DNA of 38,482 nucleotides from Lachnospiraceae bacterium (GTDB lineage Bacteria; Bacillota; Clostridia; Lachnospirales; Lachnospiraceae), in NCBI GenBank assembly GCA_022797375.1, contig JAAWKM010000019.1, positions 1 to 38,482 on the forward strand, in the 5' to 3' direction. The notes under the pieces are model-generated. The model was not told the origin of the DNA, ran no database searches, and saw only the letters and a program-made list of their open reading frames with translations. Shown one piece after another: positions 92 to 38,482 of this stretch (positions are counted from its first letter, which is position 1; each line of letters begins with the position of its first letter). A program made the translations under genes and the position numbers.

Positions 92-557
92 TTATCCTGG
101 GATTTCCTTGATTTCGTTTGTTTTTTCTTTCACACGTTTTTGTTCCAGACAGAACCCCCTTCCATCCACGGCGCTGACGGTATGGTTTGCCTTCTGGGTT
201 TTACTGTCGTTTCCCCTATGGGTTTTTCCGTCAATTGCAAGCAGCCTTTTTATTTTATTCCCTTCATCACTGTTGAGCATTTCATTTCACTGTTTTTGGA
301 AATTTTCCAGAAATTCAGGTGGCACAATTGCAAATACTCTCTGAATCGTATCATGGGATGGTATCCCGTTGGGAAGTTCCAGATACTTCCATAGAAATTT
401 CTCATGTTCTTTTGCAAATACTTCCATTTCTACTCAGTCATCTGCATTTCCCAGCGTTGCAAAAAAGACAATCATAATGATATCCATCATCTTATGCAGA
501 ATTTTTTTCTTGTCTGGTATCTGCCACTGTACTTATATAGCCTAAAAGTTTTTTCAT
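92..557 (-). pseudogene. ISAs1-family transposase remnant
   Basis: Reading the minus strand from an ATG at 557, the conceptual product starts MKKLLGYISTVADTRQ and continues through EMEVFAKEHEKFLWKYLELP, GIPSHDTIQRVFAIVPPEFL and LLAIDGKTHRGN to VSAVDGRGFCLEQKRVKEKT. This is the order of the N-terminal associated domain and the start of the DDE domain of ISAs1 (H-repeat) transposases. The gene is broken: a frameshift lies in the A-run after TRQEKK, an in-frame TGA stands where W is expected after NADD, and another stop follows the FPKQ stretch. It ends at a stop just after NEIKEIPG, so most of the catalytic domain is missing. The family assignment is from motif memory and is fairly secure. The copy cannot be active. 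Confidence 0.8.
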
Positions 558-1185
558 AAATAAATTCATCCTTTTATACTGATTATAGCATAACTTTATG
601 GATTATTCATAATTTATTAATTCATGCGTTTGTCATATATCAAATCCCACAGTTTTTGAACCAGTTAAATTTTTATAAACAAACCCAACCATTTATAATT
701 TATCAAAGTAACGGCTATAAAGCAGACACTGAAATTGCTTATCTGTAATGCTGTCTCAAAAAATTGTTTCATTTTTTAATATATAAGATTAATTCGACAT
801 AGCACATTAATATTTTCATATGAATTACTTTTTCATGCATGGCTTTTACATTCTTTGCATACCATATCAAGAACCCAATGTAGGACTCCAGCAGTTTCTT
901 TTTTGCTCTTTCCAAACAGCTCATTTTTGTATAGGATGTTGACCACATGATTGCCAGCAGCATAAACCAGAACTTTGCACAATAGCTTGTTATGCCGCTT
1001 AAGCTGTCTATACCACATAAAACTACACACATAGTTATAACCAATATGTCACTTAATTTATGCTCTGCATAGCTTTGGTGTCTTGTATCCTAAATTGATA
1101 AAAATTTTTATTTAATTTTATCCATTATTTGTGCCAACAGTCCTTTTTCATTTATATATAGTATTTAAAAATAATTAAAAAATTT

Positions 1186-1206
1186 TTTATGAAACGAACA
1201 TGTATT
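1186..1206 (+). repeat. Relic of repeat flank (ATGAAACGGACGTG motif)
   Basis: The stretch reads TTTATGAAACGAACATGTA. It resembles the motif TTTATGAAACGGACGTGTA at 9436-9453 and, reversed, the motif beside the repeats at 19574-19590 and 38343-38357. Only about 20 bases match, so it is probably a decayed end of the dispersed repeat family. Confidence 0.35.
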
Positions 1207-1714
1207 AGATTTATGATAACCACATAAAAAGTTATTATCAATAAACATTTTTATCATCTGCTTTTTTAATTCGATGCTTTATATAATCCCATCTTTATTG
1301 AATCCGCTGATAATGTAAACAAGATATTTTCTAATTCTTTTTCACAGTGCCTTGCTATTGTTTTCCTTATTCTTTTCAGGCTCTAGCTGTACATTGCCTG
1401 TACAATGCGCAGTATTGCCAGAACTGTTTTTTACATCTACATGTTCTTTGTGCATGTTTTTTGATGTTATATTATAATCATCTTTAAATGTAAAATCCAG
1501 ATGCTAATTAAGCCGGTTTTCCACTTTCCCCTGTCCCCTTGCTGACATGGAAAAAATTCCATATCCACTGGCAGGTTGCTTATGTAATATCTTTTTCTTC
1601 CAATGCTTTACCATCTTGCTTTACTAGCTTCTTTTTTACCATGCTAAATGCCGCAAGACCTCTCAACTTATATCCTATATTAATTCAAAAAAAGAAATGG
1701 CAGTTTTTTCCTTA

Positions 1715-1791
1715 TATATGGATAATATGCACTGTTGCGTGGGTTACCATAATGCAATTGTACTTCTGTACAGAATATTCCAGCTATGGCA
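1715..1791 (-). repeat. Diverged left half of foldback repeat (copy F)
   Basis: Read on the minus strand from 1791, this aligns without large gaps to the left arm of the copy at 36219-36290. It shows TGCCATAGCTGGAATATTC, then TGTACAGAAGTAC, then GGTAACCCACGCAAC followed by a GTGCAT stretch. The GGTAACCCACGCAAC core is identical to the copy at 36261. The right half is not recognisable downstream. It is an old, decayed copy. Confidence 0.6.
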
Positions 1792-9173: not shown

Positions 9174-9183
9174 AAAATGTATT

Positions 9184-9345
9184 AAAACGCCGGCGGGGCC
9201 AAAGTGCTTCTGTCATGGAAAATACCAGTCTGTACACATGAAACCTGCTGTCTTATGGCGACCCATAATTATAACTGGAATTTTTATTGTGTGCTAAATT
9301 ATTCAGACCAACGGGAAATACTGCAATAAAACCACAGATAATAAA
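9184..9345 (+). repeat. Right half of foldback repeat plus flank (fragment E1)
   Basis: This holds the right-arm blocks of the dispersed repeat in order: CGCCGGCGGGG, AAAGTGC, GTCATGGAA, CCTGCTGTCTT, then the terminal ATAACTGGAA. It continues with a flank (ATTGTGTGCTAAATTATTCA, then ACGGGAAATACT) that matches the flank after copy A at 17106-17155. The left half is missing. Confidence 0.75.
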
Positions 9346-9350
9346 ATTAA

Positions 9351-9453
9351 CAGTTTCCAGTTATATCATTCACTTTGCCAGAAGACAGCAGGTTTCATTA
9401 CTATTTGTGCCATGCAAAGCACGGCATGGGGATTTTTATGAAACGGACGTGTA
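9351..9453 (-). repeat. Inverted right-end fragment of foldback repeat (E2)
   Basis: Starts TTTCCAGTTAT, continues TTGCCAGAAGACAGCAGG and ends with the shared tail GCACGGCATGGGGATTTTTA and TGAAACGGACGTG. The first part is the reverse complement of the right end of copies A and E1. The tail matches 19574-19617 in the opposite orientation. The block at 9241-9255 and the block at 9391-9405 face each other as an inverted repeat. Confidence 0.65.
9408..9437 (+). terminator. Terminator-like hairpin downstream of aroF
   Basis: TGCCATGC, loop AAA, GCACGGCA (one G-T pair), then GGGGATTTTT. It lies within the repeat fragment, 235 bases after aroF, and upstream of the sdpR promoter. The same hairpin occurs reversed at 19599-19617. 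Confidence 0.45.
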
Positions 9454-9470
9454 GCTGGAAATTATTTATA

Positions 9471-9499
9471 TTGCTTATTTATAAATATTATGTTACAAT
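9471..9499 (+). promoter_or_regulatory. Promoter of sdpR-sdpI
   Basis: TTGCTT, 17 bases, TACAAT. The -10 box overlaps the left end of the palindrome at 9495, so a protein bound there would block RNA polymerase. Confidence 0.7.
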
Positions 9500-16721: not shown

Positions 16722-16841
16722 ATCTTCTCCTTTTCTGCAGGCATAATATGCCGCCTGCATTTATTTTTATCTATTATTACTATACTTTTTTTCCGGGTAT
16801 TTTGCAACATAAAATTACTTTTTACACATGTATGGTTTATA

Positions 16842-17106
16842 AAAATTCCAGTTATTCTGTGTTTGGAAACGGACGCAGTGTTCCCAGTGCCAGGGCGGGT
16901 TTATTCCATGACAGGGCACGCTTGCGCTATGGTAACCCACGCAGCGGCACATAAAGCCCCTGTGTCCCAAAAGAAACTTACGTTTCTTCTGCCACACAGG
17001 GCTTAAATGCCGGCGGGGTTAAAGTGCACCTGCCATGGAATAAACCCGCCCTGGCATATGGAACCTGCTGTCTTCTGGCAAACTTGGAATTATAACTGGA
17101 AATTTT
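16842..17106. repeat. Foldback repeat, copy A (full length)
   Basis: A 265-bp element whose ends are inverted repeats (TTCCAGTTAT at 16846 and ATAACTGGAA at 17092). Inside, 16888-16910 is the exact reverse complement of 17034-17056 over 23 bases. The middle folds again: GGTAACCCACGCAGCGGCAC opposite GCCGGCGGGGTTAAAGTGC, with an apical hairpin around 16950-17002. The copies at 36172, 36576 and 38355 share this layout. Short open frames inside it are not genes. Confidence 0.9.
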
Positions 17107-19573: not shown

Positions 19574-19640
19574 CATGTCCGTTTCATAAAAATCCCCATG
19601 CCGTGCTTTGCACGGCACAAAATAGCTGGAAGTTCTATTA
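19574..19640. repeat. Repeat tail fragment
   Basis: ATGTCCGTTTCATAAAAATC then CCCATGCCGTGCTTTGCACG, followed by AATAGCTGGAA. Apart from single bases it is the reverse complement of 9400-9461. The first motif also flanks copy D at 38342-38357. It is a piece of the dispersed repeat family without the long arms. Confidence 0.7.
19591..19617 (-). terminator. Terminator of the JAMM/MoxR/VWA operon
   Basis: TGCCGTGC, loop of 3, GCACGGCA: a perfect 8-bp stem that on the minus strand is followed by TGGGGATTTTTA. It lies about 70 bases after the JAMM gene stop and is itself part of the dispersed repeat. Confidence 0.65.
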
Positions 19641-25713: not shown

Positions 25714-25774
25714 CTTTCAAGGAAATGGCAGTCCAGCCTGCCAGCTATATTTCTGGACAGAAATGTCCTAAAAC

Positions 25775-25940
25775 ATTAGCGCCAGTCCCTTTTCCTGCAT
25801 TTTAAGATATTGCCTGGAAGCAGCTTTTAAGGGTGACGAGGTAAAAGGTTATCGAAATTTCGGCGGATGCCTTTTCGTATTATTTGCATACGTCAGGTAC
25901 AGGCAAATACCTGGGCAACCAGGGAACAAATACTGTATCA
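25775..25940 (+). ncRNA. glmS ribozyme (glucosamine-6-phosphate activated)
   Basis: The conserved blocks are in order: AGCGCC at 25778, with cleavage expected between A25778 and G25779; GTGACGAGGT at 25833; TTATCGAAATTTCGGCGGAT at 25849-25868; and a distal part with GCATACGTCAGG and ACCTGGGCAACCAGG. The stem CCCTTTT...AAGGG closes the P2 region. When glucosamine 6-phosphate is plentiful the RNA cuts itself and the downstream glmS message decays. It ends about 57 bases before the glmS ATG. The 3' border is approximate. Confidence 0.92.
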
Positions 25941-25997
25941 GCAAATGTACATTTTAATATAATAATATAGGCAAATAATGCGGAAATGAGGTAAATT

Positions 25998-27818
25998 ATG
26001 TGTGGAATTATTGGATTTACAGGTAATATCAATGCAAAAGATGTGCTTTTGCAGGGACTTAAGGCACTTGAATACCGTGGTTATGACAGTGCAGGGATTT
26101 CTTATTTTACAGAGAATGGCATAAGGACAATTAAAGCCGTTGGAAAGGTTTCAGGCCTGGCAGATAAAATTGCTGCTTCGCCTTGTGACACAGCAAAATG
26201 CGGGATAGGACATACAAGATGGGCTACGCATGGGGGTGTTTCTGAAACTAACTGCCATCCGCACCATTTTGGCAAAGTAACCCTTATCCATAATGGTATT
26301 ATTGAAAATTACAAGGAATTACAGGATGAACTCTCAAAAGAAGGCAAAGAACCAGTATCGCAGACAGACTCTGAAATTGCTGCTATGGTTATTGACTCAT
26401 GTTATAAAAACAATCCTGTCAGGGCAATTAAAAAAGCTGTTAAAAAGCTTCATGGTGCATATGCCTTCTGCATTATGTTTGAAGACCATCCTGGAAGCAT
26501 TTATGCAATAAGGAACGGCAGCCCTCTTGTTGCTACTGCTACAAAGGAGGGTGCTATCATTGCATCAGACATGGTTGCGCTTATAAAATATTCTAAAGAT
26601 TATTTTGTACTGCCAGAACACCATATAGCACACCTTACTGCAAAGAGCATTAATATTACGGACCTTGACCAGAATGAAATTGAACCAGATATGCTACATG
26701 TAAACTGGGATATGGCAGCAGCCAGAAAAGGCGGATATGAGTATTTTATGCTTAAAGAAATACATGAGCAGCCAGAATCACTGCATAATACAATATCACC
26801 AAGAATAAAAGACGGCCTGCCTGATTTCTCAGCAGACAATATCCCAGACAGTCTTTTTACAAATATTAACAGAATAGTAATCACAGCCTGTGGCACAGCA
26901 ATGCATGCAGGGCTTATTGGCAAAAACATGATAGAGAGGTTCTCAAGAATTCCTGTTAGTGTGGACATTGCATCAGAATTCCGCTACCAGAACCCTATAC
27001 TTGACAGCAGCACGCTTGTTATTACTATATCACAGTCTGGCGAAACTGCAGATACACTTGCAGCATTAAGGCTCGCCAAAGAAAGTGGTGCAAAAACCCT
27101 GTCAATAGTAAATGTAAAAGGGTCATCCATTGCACGTGAAAGTGATTATGTGCTCTACACACATGCAGGCCCTGAAATAGCTGTTGCAAGCACTAAGGCA
27201 TATACTGTACAGCTCGCAGCAGTATACCTTATTGCATTCAGGTTTGCACTTGCCAAAGGAACATCAACAGAAGAGGAAACCAGGAAGCTGGCATCCACCC
27301 TTCTTGAAATGCCTGCATTTGTAGAAAATATGCTTTTATGTGACAAGGCAATAGAATCTATCAGCAATAAGCTGAAAAAAACCAAAAACCTCTTCTTTAT
27401 TGGGCGTGGGCTTGATTATGCACTTTCATGCGAGGGCTCAATTAAATTAAAAGAAGTAAGCTATATACATTCGGAAGCTTATGCGGCAGGTGAACTTAAA
27501 CATGGCACTATTTCCCTTATTACAGATAATGTGCCAGTAATTGCGCTTGCTACACAGGAAAATGTATTTGCCAAGATGATTTCAAATATACGTGAAGTGC
27601 GTTCACGCGGGGCAAAAGTTATAATGATAGCAGGCGATGGCGCACAGGTCGACGCCTCACTCTGCGACCACCTGGTTACACTCCCGCCAGTAAATGATTT
27701 ATTTGCCCCATTTGGTGCTGCAATAGTGCTACAATATATTGCATACTATACAGCAACTGCAAGAGGGCTTAATGTAGACCAGCCAAGAAACCTGGCAAAA
27801 TCAGTAACAGTAGAATAA
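25998..27818 (+). CDS. glmS: Glutamine-fructose-6-phosphate aminotransferase (isomerizing)
   Basis: Makes glucosamine 6-phosphate from fructose 6-phosphate and glutamine, the entry to peptidoglycan amino sugars. The 606-residue length is typical. It begins MCGIIGFTGN, with Cys2 becoming the N-terminal nucleophile of the glutaminase domain after removal of Met; then GHTRWATHGGVSETNCHPH near 73-91. Two sugar-isomerase (SIS) domains follow: TACGTAMHAGLIGKN and TISQSGETADTLAALR near 345, then FIGRGLDYALSCEGSIKLKE near 465. The C-terminus ends in NLAKSVTVE as expected. The ribosome binding site is GAGGT. Expression is controlled by the ribozyme just upstream. Confidence 0.97.
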   Translation: MCGIIGFTGNINAKDVLLQGLKALEYRGYDSAGISYFTENGIRTIKAVGKVSGLADKIAASPCDTAKCGIGHTRWATHGGVSETNCHPHHFGKVTLIHNGIIENYKELQDELSKEGKEPVSQTDSEIAAMVIDSCYKNNPVRAIKKAVKKLHGAYAFCIMFEDHPGSIYAIRNGSPLVATATKEGAIIASDMVALIKYSKDYFVLPEHHIAHLTAKSINITDLDQNEIEPDMLHVNWDMAAARKGGYEYFMLKEIHEQPESLHNTISPRIKDGLPDFSADNIPDSLFTNINRIVITACGTAMHAGLIGKNMIERFSRIPVSVDIASEFRYQNPILDSSTLVITISQSGETADTLAALRLAKESGAKTLSIVNVKGSSIARESDYVLYTHAGPEIAVASTKAYTVQLAAVYLIAFRFALAKGTSTEEETRKLASTLLEMPAFVENMLLCDKAIESISNKLKKTKNLFFIGRGLDYALSCEGSIKLKEVSYIHSEAYAAGELKHGTISLITDNVPVIALATQENVFAKMISNIREVRSRGAKVIMIAGDGAQVDASLCDHLVTLPPVNDLFAPFGAAIVLQYIAYYTATARGLNVDQPRNLAKSVTVE

Positions 27819-32157: not shown

Positions 32158-32664
32158 ATGAAAAAACCAAAATTTCTTGCATTCTTAATTGCAGCACTTC
32201 TTATCACACTTTCTTTTCCATCTTTTACTAATGCAGCTTCCAGGGAAACACCAGCAAGCATTGTAGCACGCCTTACTGGAAGGTCTGTTGAAGATGTAAT
32301 ACGTGAAAAACTTGATACTGGAAAAACTTATGGAACTATCGCGAAAGAAAACGGCAAATTAAAAGAGTTCCAGAAAGAATGTCTTAGCCTTAAAGAAAAA
32401 GCATTAAAACAAGATGTTAAAAACGGCTATCTTTCACAAAAAGAGGCAGATAAAATCCTTGCTGCAATAAAAGCGAACCAGGAAACTTGTGACGGCACTG
32501 GCAATGGTAATTGCGGCTATGGCAATGGCGCAGGTTATGGCAACGGAAAAGGCAGAGGTGGCAACGGCGCAGGCTATGGCAACGGAAGAGGCAGAGGCGG
32601 CAACGGCGCAGGCTATGGTAAAGGTTATGGCATCTGCAATAATTATTGTATTTATAACAGCTGA
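32158..32664 (+). CDS. Small secreted DUF2680-like protein with glycine-rich repeats
   Basis: A 168-residue exported protein. The signal peptide is clear: MKKPK, a hydrophobic stretch to about residue 20, and a cleavage site after TNA (residue 26). Residues 30-105 are helical and charged, with YLSQKEADKILAAIKA, the pattern of the DUF2680 (YckD) family. From residue 110 the chain is glycine-rich, with a repeated unit of about 14 residues, GNGAGYGNGKGRGG, occurring nearly three times; the repeat is also visible in the DNA. It ends with CNNYCIYNS and has four cysteines in all. The ribosome binding site AAGGGGG is good. It lies divergent from a two-component system and may be its target or ligand-side partner. 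Function unknown. Confidence 0.8.
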   Translation: MKKPKFLAFLIAALLITLSFPSFTNAASRETPASIVARLTGRSVEDVIREKLDTGKTYGTIAKENGKLKEFQKECLSLKEKALKQDVKNGYLSQKEADKILAAIKANQETCDGTGNGNCGYGNGAGYGNGKGRGGNGAGYGNGRGRGGNGAGYGKGYGICNNYCIYNS

Positions 32665-36120: not shown

Positions 36121-36171
36121 TATATATGACCCAAGCGGGCGGATTCCAGCCCAAACGGTAAATATAAGGGG

Positions 36172-36449
36172 ATAATTTCCAGTTATCTTATATTGGTTTA
36201 AAAGCGGACGGTTCCTGTGCCAGAGCCAGAATATTCCGTACAGGGGTACGCTTGCGCTACGGTAACCCACGCAACGGCACATAAAGCCCATGTGTCCCAA
36301 AACAAAATTGTGTTTCTTCTGTGGCACATGGGCTTAAATGCCGGCGGGGTTAAAGTACCCCTTTTACGGAATAATTGCTGTCACCTGGCACGCGTAACCT
36401 GATACTGTAAATCCGCAGTAAAACCCAGAACAATAAGATAACTGTATAT
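36172..36449. repeat. Foldback repeat, copy B (full length)
   Basis: About 278 bp. The left end ATTTCCAGTTATCTTA pairs with TAAGATAACTGTATAT at the right. The arms around 36219-36249 and 36355-36390 are complementary although they differ from copy A. The core GGTAACCCACGCAACGGCAC and the opposite ATGCCGGCGGGGTTAAAGTA are nearly as in copy A. An apical hairpin has AGCCCATGTG/CACATGGGCT. It lies between the secreted protein and the LytTR regulator. Confidence 0.9.
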
Positions 36450-36575
36450 TATATTTGGAAAATTATTTTGCTGGTTTTAACCCATATTCCAATTATTTTT
36501 TAAGTTTTATAAATTTCCTAATACAAGACAAGAGGTTATTATCTTAATGTTTGCCTGAATAACCATCTACTCAAC

Positions 36576-36811
36576 ATAATTTCCAGTTAAATTTCTAGCT
36601 TTGCCAGAAAACAGCAGGTTTCACGTGTCCAGGCTAAACTTTATTCCATGACAAGTGCACTTTAGCACCGTCGGCGCTTAAATCTGGTTTTTTCAGATTT
36701 TATGCGTCCGTTGCGTGGGCTAATGTAGTGAGAACGTGCACTGGAATGGAATAATTTAGCTGGACACGCAAACCCTGCGTCCGTCTGCAATATAAGATAA
36801 CTGGAAATTAT
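36576..36811. repeat. Foldback repeat, copy C (full length, reversed)
   Basis: 236 bp with perfect 14-bp inverted ends (ATAATTTCCAGTTA and its complement). In reverse orientation it carries the same blocks as copy A: TTCCAGTTATCTTATATTGC, GGACGCAGGG, CCCACGCAACGG, GGCAAAG. The apical hairpin is AAATCTG/CAGATTT, unlike the GC-rich one in A and B. The arms CGTGTCCAG/CTGGACACG and GTGCAC/GTGCAC pair. Confidence 0.9.
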
Positions 36812-36883
36812 CATATACCCACTGAAACAGGTATGTGACAGTCCAGCCTTCCATAAATGCAAGAATTTTTGAAAGCACTGCTA

Positions 36884-36916
36884 GTTACTATGAACAGCGT
36901 AGCTGTGAATAGTAAC
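36884..36916. repeat. Imperfect hairpin (GTTACTAT ... ATAGTAAC)
   Basis: A 15-bp inverted repeat with two mismatches and a 3-base loop, including AACAGC-GTA-GCTGT. It lies just upstream of the LytTR promoter. I recall similar GTTACTGTTCACAGC-type hairpins scattered in Lachnospiraceae genomes. It has no T-run, so a terminator role is doubtful. Confidence 0.5.
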
Positions 36917-36944
36917 ACAGGTATATCAAAAAATATAATTATAC

Positions 36945-38322: not shown

Positions 38323-38354
38323 ATATTACAATACTTTTTCCACGTCCGTTTCAT

Positions 38355-38482
38355 AAAATTTCCAGTTATCCTGTGCTTGCAGGCGGACGCAGGGTTTCCA
38401 GTGCCAGGGCGTGTTTATTCCATTCCAGGAAAGCATGTCGCAGACATGGCTTTTGCATGCATTGCGCTACGGTAACCCACGC
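38355..38482. repeat. Foldback repeat, copy D (left part, cut by window end)
   Basis: Starts AAAATTTCCAGTTATC, then GGCGGACGCAGGG, GTGCCAGGGCGTGTTTATTC and GCTACGGTAACCCACGC, the left-half blocks of copies A and B in the same order. An extra hairpin CATGTC-GCA-GACATG is inserted at 38434. CACGTCCGTTTCAT just before it matches the tail at 19575. The right half lies outside the window. Confidence 0.85.

What the first reader, a model, noticed from the sequence alone, without database searches (positions are those of the whole stretch)
16842..17106. Family of large foldback elements whose arms change sequence but stay self-complementary
Copies A (16842), B (36172), C (36576) and D (38355, partial), with relics at 1715, 9184, 9351 and 19574, share ends TTCCAGTTA/TAACTGGAA and a core GGTAACCCACGCA. 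They differ in the arms while keeping pairing: GCAC/GTGC in A versus GTAC/GTAC in B, CCAT/ATGG versus CCGT/ACGG, and an apical hairpin that is GC-rich in A and B but AAATCTG/CAGATTT in C. Paired changes mean the folded form is either selected or actively kept up by copying one arm from the other. The family could be a non-autonomous mobile element (MITE or REP-like), a structured RNA, or both. Seven or eight traces in 38 kb is a high density.
Basis: partly seen in the sequence, partly recalled or inferred. Interest (0 to 1): 0.75.

Follow-up and report, generated by a model that had tools for sequence, protein, structure and literature searches.

The report
Promoter-seeking mobile palindrome family
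The long DNA palindromes in this gut bacterium are small mobile elements that mostly sit at a nearly fixed distance in front of predicted gene promoters, and their centre looks like a folded RNA that repeats with other ends in related bacteria also carry.

Summary
The foldbacks are real and belong to a large family: 227 places with an 18-bp terminal repeat (CACGTCCGTTTCATAAAA, up to 2 mismatches) in the genome against 2 for a reversed control, and at most 4 in each of 27 congeners. They are MITEs: 9-10 bp target duplications (9 of 53 end pairs, 0 of 212 shifted controls), ends shared with broken ISAs1-family transposase genes. Unexpectedly, most insertions lie 18-19 nt upstream of the -35 box of a sigmaA-like promoter pointing away: 95 of 137 flanks, mean 10 at other offsets. 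ISAs1 insertion sequences of other bacteria do likewise: 26 of 44, 0-3 at other offsets. The promoter targeting I could read about concerns Mutator-type transposases.

The arms covary, largely as matching blocks. The ~95-125-nt apical core is shared by repeats with three unrelated kinds of ends in three species, with covarying helices and a GNRA loop on one strand (45 of 55; 0 of 47 on the other): a candidate RNA without Rfam match. Transcription and transposition are untested, no intact transposase with these ends was found, and one relevant ISAs1 paper could not be read.

The parts
299..511 (-). ISAs1-type transposase relic (PF13808 match with a stop inside)
   Evidence: 8.8e-19
973..1202 (-). 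Second ISAs1-type transposase relic (N-terminal part 973-1104) with terminal repeat 1185-1202; no promoter at the fixed offset outside this end (best score 6)
   Evidence: (1.4e-9)
1646..1771 (+). Decayed copy of the core module
   Evidence: 22.6 bits, E 0.0039
9179..9451 (.). Chimeric element (left boundary by eye): foldback remnant, spacer, partial second foldback and IS-type end; TIR 9434-9451. Outward promoter -35 TTGCTT 9471-9476, -10 TACAAT 9494-9499 (offset 19, score 8)
16827..17106 (.). Element A: degenerate TIR (5 mismatches) from 16827 and foldback 16842-17106. Outward promoter TTGCAA/TATAGT at offset 19 (score 9), reading to lower coordinates
16908..17031 (-). Core RNA-like module of A, GCAA tetraloop on this strand
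   Evidence: 116.6 bits; L001 row
19574..19630 (.). Small MITE, TIR 19574-19591, right boundary by eye; outward promoter TTGCCA/TATATT at offset 19 (score 10)
36171..36812 (.). B + C double unit: two inverted foldbacks around a spacer; outer 25 nt fully complementary; no CACGTCC TIR seen
36238..36362 (-). Core RNA-like module of B
   Evidence: 103.4 bits
36653..36747 (+). Core RNA-like module of C
   Evidence: 77.5 bits
38341..38482 (.). Element D, cut by the contig end; perfect TIR 38341-38358; outward promoter TTTGCA/TAAAAT at offset 17 (score 9); core fragment 38447-38482(-), E 0.88

Best explanation
The foldbacks are MITEs descended from an ISAs1-family insertion sequence and mobilised in trans by its Tn5-like DDE transposase. 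That transposase puts the element about 18-19 nt upstream of the -35 box of a sigmaA-type promoter and duplicates 9-10 bp, which would lie near -46 to -55. Shown by sequence: terminal repeats, duplications, ISAs1 relics inside the same ends, fixed spacing to predicted promoters, and the same spacing for ISAs1 insertion sequences elsewhere. Inferred: that the transposase contacts promoter-bound RNA polymerase or promoter DNA, with the -35 side as anchor. Inside the MITE is a ~95-125-nt module (bulged stem, conserved internal loop, side hairpin with GNRA loop) that is most likely a folded RNA read from the inner side outward, so in the direction of the promoter that its end faces (inferred). The long arms stay complementary probably mainly because one arm is copied from the other at DNA level (inferred, weaker).
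For: MITE: 227 TIR places against 2; duplications 9 of 53 against 0 of 212; ISAs1 gene starting 80 nt inside a TIR in C7, and the C42 relic ending at a TIR (NF033564 116.9 bits for C42). Promoter: 95 of 137 flanks at offset 17-20 (score >=8) against a mean of 10 at twelve other offsets; at score >=9 positions 18 and 19 hold 29 and 49 outward, 0 and 0 inward; 16 of 20 complete units; 49 of 57 unambiguous promoters at 18-19, -35 distance varying less than -10 distance (0.46 against 0.65-0.98); three of four relic-bearing ends printed fit, read by eye. ISAs1 elsewhere: 26 of 44 duplication-defined ISs at score >=9, six other offsets 0-3, reverse reading 1. Repeats of congeners with other ends: no flank at score >=9 in 14 listed end pairs, two flanks at 8. 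Tn5 is the best fold match (E 1e-8, TM 0.48 of query). RNA core: covariation 0.412 against 0.192, 0 of 500; GNRA 45 of 55 on one strand, 0 of 47 on the other; that strand folds better in 55 of 55 own cores and 21 of 21 over four subfamilies; model hits in another genus with GAGA and GAAA loops. Arms: partner blocks alike 8.85 against 4.91 permuted, 0 of 5000.
Against: Every transposase gene found with this TIR is broken; an intact one may be lost in assembly gaps. 44 of 53 end pairs show no duplication (many may not be true partners). Promoters are consensus matches only; 42 of 137 flanks (score >=8) and 18 of 44 other ISs (score >=9) show none. A has a degenerate TIR, B/C none, and no duplication was shown for A-D. 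One large survey lists ISAs1 among families overrepresented between convergent genes (PMC9208149, passages), which promoter targeting would not predict. Arms: wobble counts lean to G.U on the plus strand in the arms (138 to 85 over whole arms, p 5e-4; 14 to 4 cells in helices 1-2), and the plus strand of the arms is the more stable in 40 of 55, against pure DNA copying. 8 of 55 side hairpins have five-base loops, 2 are not GNRA. The other-genus core match is E 2.5e-5 with rough calibration. No transcript, transposition or empty site was observed.
Confidence: 0.75

Rival explanations
1. The mobiliser is a Mutator-type transposase (ISLre2/TnGBS or ISKra4), already known to insert upstream of sigmaA promoters; the ISAs1 relics inside these ends are coincidental.
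For: Promoter-upstream insertion is established for those elements, and the genome holds four ISLre2-type (PF06782) matches.
Against: No such TIR at <=4 mismatches in the loci of those matches (one of them is cut by a contig end about 100 nt away). ISAs1 relics lie directly inside these ends. ISAs1 insertion sequences with their own ends obey the spacing elsewhere. Reported spacing 15-17 and repeats of 8-9 bp differ from 18-19 and 9-10. ISKra4 transposases were not searched for.
Confidence: 0.07
2. No targeting: insertion is random in intergenic DNA and only insertions that spare promoters survive.
For: Intergenic survivors are expected anyway, and the flanks are AT-rich.
Against: Survival would allow many distances, not a peak at 18-19 nt. 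The congeners' repeats with other ends lack the peak.
Confidence: 0.04
3. The whole foldback, arms included, is kept by selection for a long hairpin (terminator, RNase III substrate, cruciform), not by arm copying.
For: Strong covariation; G.U excess on the plus strand in the arms (helices 1-2); arms more stable on the plus strand in 40 of 55.
Against: Changes come as matching blocks of several bases with length changes; over all 34 pairs G.U and A.C cells are 23 and 22, though with opposite lean in arms and core; isolated mid-arm mismatches are 1 G.U and 6 A.C; several elements carry unmatched mosaic arms.
Confidence: 0.3
4. The core is not an RNA but a DNA hairpin bound by a protein or used in replication or transposition.
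For: No transcript is known; the element is a DNA transposon; both strands fold.
Against: A side loop that varies almost only within GNRA on one strand, and a helix closed by U.G or C-G on that strand, are RNA-type signatures.
Confidence: 0.25

Closest known systems
ISAs1 family insertion sequences (NCBIfam NF033564; IS1548, E. coli ISEc1/ISEc5)
   Same: Transposase family of the relics; other members tested here are mostly ~1.2-1.6 kb with CA(C/G)G ends and 9-10 bp duplications
   Different: Other TIR sequence; in this genome only broken genes found, plus many non-autonomous derivatives. I saw no statement of promoter spacing for the family; IS1548 is reported 9 bp upstream of the putative lmb promoter (PMC2875397, passages) and 38 bp upstream of a Mga-dependent scl1 promoter (PMC5005324, passages)
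TnGBS / ISLre2 (p-MULT 3) and ISKra4 elements
   Same: Insertion at a fixed short distance upstream of sigmaA promoters (PMC3942029; abstract, sections 11, 12, 15)
   Different: Mutator-superfamily transposase, 15-17 nt, 8-9 bp duplications; here Tn5-like ISAs1 transposase, 18-19 nt, 9-10 bp
Prokaryotic MITEs (review PMC10969869, passages)
   Same: Short, TIR-ended, high copy, mobilised in trans
   Different: Fixed placement upstream of promoters and a core shared between different ends were not in the passages seen
Rfam structured RNAs
   Same: Three-way junction with GNRA loop, covarying helices
   Different: No Rfam 15 family at gathering score in the window except glmS elsewhere; permissive searches gave weak microRNA-precursor and rli47 hits far below gathering

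Membership tests
MITE | Terminal inverted repeats | tested here: met
   227 against 2 control places
MITE | Target site duplication | tested here: met
   9-10 bp in 9 of 53 end pairs, 0 of 212 controls; not shown for A, B/C or D
MITE | Short, no own transposase, high copy | tested here: met
   20 complete units of 51-694 bp
MITE | Cognate autonomous element with the same ends | tested here: inconclusive
   ISAs1 genes inside the TIR, all broken; no intact copy found
ISAs1 family (parent element) | ISAs1 transposase by curated model | tested here: met
   C42 relic 116.9 bits (cut-off 70); truncated C7 relic 32.5 bits, under the cut-off
ISAs1 family (parent element) | Duplications of 8-10 bp (range recalled, not from a call) | tested here: met
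ISAs1 family (parent element) | Transposition by this transposase | not testable with these tools
   needs a bench assay
p-MULT 3 / ISLre2 | Mutator-type transposase inside the ends | tested here: not met
p-MULT 3 / ISLre2 | Fixed distance upstream of sigmaA promoters | tested here: met
   spacing 18-19 rather than 15-17
Structured non-coding RNA | Covariation above shuffled and slid controls | tested here: met
   shuffles do not remove relatedness
Structured non-coding RNA | Transcript | not testable with these tools
   no expression data at hand
Known Rfam family | Score above gathering | tested here: not met

The most novel reading that the evidence does not exclude
ISAs1 transposases are a second, independently evolved lineage that reads bacterial promoters (through RNA polymerase or the -35 element). 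Their MITEs carry a mobile structured RNA module, shared among transposons with unrelated ends, which lands in sense orientation just upstream of host promoters: a portable regulatory RNA spread over a genome by a promoter-seeking transposon.
Probability: 0.33. Interest if true: 0.9.

Novelty: new variant of a known kind. Interest (0 to 1): 0.72.

Why it matters
Promoter-positioned insertion was described, in what I could read, for Mutator-type transposases. Finding it in the ISAs1 family, whose transposase is Tn5-like, gives a second system in which to ask how a transposase finds a promoter, with a simple test (add or remove RNA polymerase). It may also help explain how ISAs1 insertions change expression of neighbouring genes without destroying their promoters. 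The RNA-like core, shared by repeats with unrelated ends, is an undescribed candidate RNA whose passage between mobile elements needs an explanation.

Tried and rejected
Rejected: TTCCAGTTA as the element end. ISLre2 as mobiliser: TIR not seen near its relics. E. coli H-repeat ydcC as a further test: no ends with a duplication could be defined, so it says nothing; the 60 E. coli rows were not followed. Exact core pattern in viral contigs: none; A in plasmids and phages: none. First anchors of the arm-block test were misaligned, so their exact-match counts are not used. In one search the exact count (9 of 55) is still lowered by a slice error of one base in the short-apex class, and by its nearest-neighbour measure the partner arm was closer in 26, tied in 10 and farther in 19 of 55. 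The equal G.U and A.C totals over 34 pairs (23, 22) hide a lean: helices 1-4 hold 22 and 8, helices 5-7 hold 1 and 14 (my recount of the tables). Because of that recount I raised the rival 'hairpin selection' from 0.20 to 0.30 and lowered the best explanation from 0.77 to 0.75. The promoter score is my own (12-point hexamer match, A2 and T6 of the -10 box required, spacer 16-18); two further TIR-like matches in the window (10193, 6 mismatches, score 9; 24323, 4 mismatches, score 5) are taken as chance.

Rows dropped before counts: foldbacks were kept only with ends TTCCAGTTA (<=1 mismatch), length 200-300 and folding energy of -0.38 per base or lower (58 kept); 4 overlapping ones were dropped and window B added, giving 55 (A1). 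Ends could not be defined in 51 of 80 named ISAs1 loci and 32 of 49 others; 46 became 44 after removing near-identical flanks. A4/A5 hold 21 of the 25 cores. One search covered the window and 95 of the 319 loci. One search printed about 100 of its 227 places, so the flanks are a sample. My note says 18 of 49; the output shows 17.

Full report
What is in the window. The window is contig C38 of a 3.94-Mb, 269-contig genome. A finds 97 matching stretches there; 40 of them have E below 1e-38 (76-100% identity), many at contig ends and several in inverted pairs. Of 61 genomes searched with A, own genome included, 3 match.

True ends and mobility. The flanks of the copies showed a conserved block outside TTCCAGTTA: CACGTCCGTTTCATAAAA. 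It occurs at 227 places with up to 2 mismatches; the reversed control gives 2. Of 53 pairs of opposed ends, 9 have near-perfect 9-10 bp direct repeats outside, against 0 of 212 shifted controls. Twenty complete units run from 51 to 694 bp: tiny ones, single foldbacks near 300 bp, double foldbacks of 639-694 bp. In 27 congeners the end occurs at most 4 times per genome, so among the genomes searched the expansion is confined to this one.

Parent element. ISAs1-type transposase relics lie inside these ends. In contig C7 the order is TIR, the subterminal hairpin also seen in one MITE subtype, then the start codon 80 nt in; in C42 the gene ends in a TIR; the window holds relics at 299-511 and 973-1202. 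The curated ISAs1 model gives the C42 piece 116.9 bits (cut-off 70) and the truncated C7 piece 32.5. All genes found with this end are broken. A predicted structure of a relative (mean pLDDT 87.6) matches Tn5 transposase best (E 1e-8).

Promoter spacing. Outward from 137 distinct element ends, a sigmaA-like promoter of score >=10 of 12 pointing away was found in 60 flanks, pointing inward in 14, in shuffled flanks in 6. At score >=9 the outward counts for a -35 box starting 17, 18, 19 and 20 nt away are 5, 29, 49 and 9; inward 0, 0, 0 and 2. At score >=8, 95 of 137 flanks have it at 17-20, against a mean of 10 at twelve other offsets. Of 20 complete units 16 have it at one or both ends, 4 at neither. 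With free spacing, 49 of 57 unambiguous promoters lie at 18 or 19, and the -35 distance varies less than the -10 distance. In 146 ends grouped by type it ranges from 10 of 10 (one hairpin type) to 2 of 7 (unclassified). In the window the ends 16827, 19574, 38341 and 9451 obey it and the relic end 1202 does not. Of four relic-bearing ends printed three fit by eye (C7, C42, C246), the window one does not. In congeners, both ends of the G018 copy and one of two of the G014 copy score >=8 at offset 19; single end matches in G013 and G002 do not.

Is it an ISAs1 trait? ISAs1 loci of other genomes came from family searches and one scan of named genomes. Ends could be set by TIR plus duplication in 17 of 49 and 29 of 80; 44 remained without near-identical flanks. 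At score >=9, 26 of 44 have a promoter at 17-20 on one side only (20 right, 6 left); six other offsets give 0-3, reverse reading 1. Hosts with a match at score >=8 include Lachnospiraceae, Streptococcus ratti and Clostridium. Repeats of two congeners with other ends reach no score >=9 in 14 listed end pairs.

Literature. Guerillot et al. 2014 (PMC3942029; abstract, sections 11, 12, 15) describe such targeting for p-MULT 3 and ISKra4 elements, 15-17 nt, 8-9 bp repeats; PMC4701971 (passages) repeats it for TnGBS. IS1548, an ISAs1 member, is said to lie 9 bp upstream of the putative lmb promoter (PMC2875397, passages) and 38 bp upstream of a Mga-dependent scl1 promoter (PMC5005324, passages). Against: PMC9208149 (passages) lists ISAs1 among families overrepresented between convergent genes. 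Ten searches showed no statement of promoter targeting for ISAs1 in listings or passages seen; Flechard et al. 2013 on IS1548 targets is not held and may contain it.

The arms. Fifty-five foldbacks, chosen partly by folding energy, were aligned with the outer arm left. Over 34 pairs 97.7% of cells pair, 25 pairs change on both sides, covariation is 0.308 against 0.144 shuffled and at most 0.077 with slid partners. The variable mid-arm block matches its partner: similarity 8.85 against 4.91 permuted, none of 5000 reaching it. Some elements have unmatched mosaic arms. Wobble evidence is mixed: G.U and A.C cells are 23 and 22 in all, but 22 and 8 in helices 1-4 and 1 and 14 in helices 5-7 (recounted); isolated mid-arm mismatches 1 and 6; whole arms 138 and 85. 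I favour DNA-level arm copying because of the block changes, with moderate confidence.

The core. Two congeners hold repeats with entirely different ends but the same centre; one shows about 11-bp flanking repeats by eye. On 21 cores (two subfamilies here, one family in each congener), 23 pairs on the strand reading from the inner side outward are 97.5% paired, 14 change on both sides, covariation 0.412 against 0.192, none of 500 shuffles reaching it. That strand is the more stable in 55 of 55 own cores and 21 of 21 of this set, but for the arms only in 15 of 55. The side hairpin has a GNRA loop on that strand in 45 of 55 (GGAA 22, GCAA 18, GAGA 2, GAAA, GTGA, GGGA 1 each), a five-base loop in 8 and another in 2; on the other strand 0 of 47. 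A covariance model found further copies in G014 (L067, L070, L183) and two inverted copies around an ISAs1 IS in another genus (L208; 30.9 bits, E 2.5e-5, and 23.1 bits, E 0.0029), with GAGA and GAAA loops and the same stronger strand. Rfam has no real match. A leader motif at the inner end of 29 of 53 foldbacks could hold a promoter for this strand; that is speculation.

Verdict. The finding is right that these are structured mobile repeats and wrong about their ends. The surprising results are the promoter spacing, extended to the ISAs1 family, and a candidate RNA module shared by unrelated mobile ends.

Noticed in passing
window 25767-25948: glmS ribozyme, 80 bits, upstream of the ORF at 25998-27818.
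   Followed up: no
window 32499-32615: Three tandem 39-bp repeats within the ORF 32158-32664.
   Followed up: no
window 36877-36925: Hairpin with GTTACTATGAACAGCGTAGCTGTGAATAGTAAC, like the end of another MITE subtype of this TIR family, here without a TIR seen beside it.
   Followed up: partly
L183 1501-1787 (G014): 287-bp element with two perfect TIRs holding, by eye, pieces of the ISAs1 element: a step between IS and MITE.
   Followed up: partly
L038 1500-1550, L041 1500-1550: 51-bp minimal elements made of little more than two terminal repeats; L038 has a 9-bp duplication with one mismatch.
   Followed up: partly
L195, L196, L197 (C108, C142, C219): ISLre2-type (UPF0236) transposase fragments in the same genome, without this TIR seen nearby.
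   Followed up: partly
L161-L173: Thirteen fetched contig starts lie inside an element, 95-172 nt before its outer end, so the repeats break the assembly and an intact parent IS may be missing from it.
   Followed up: partly
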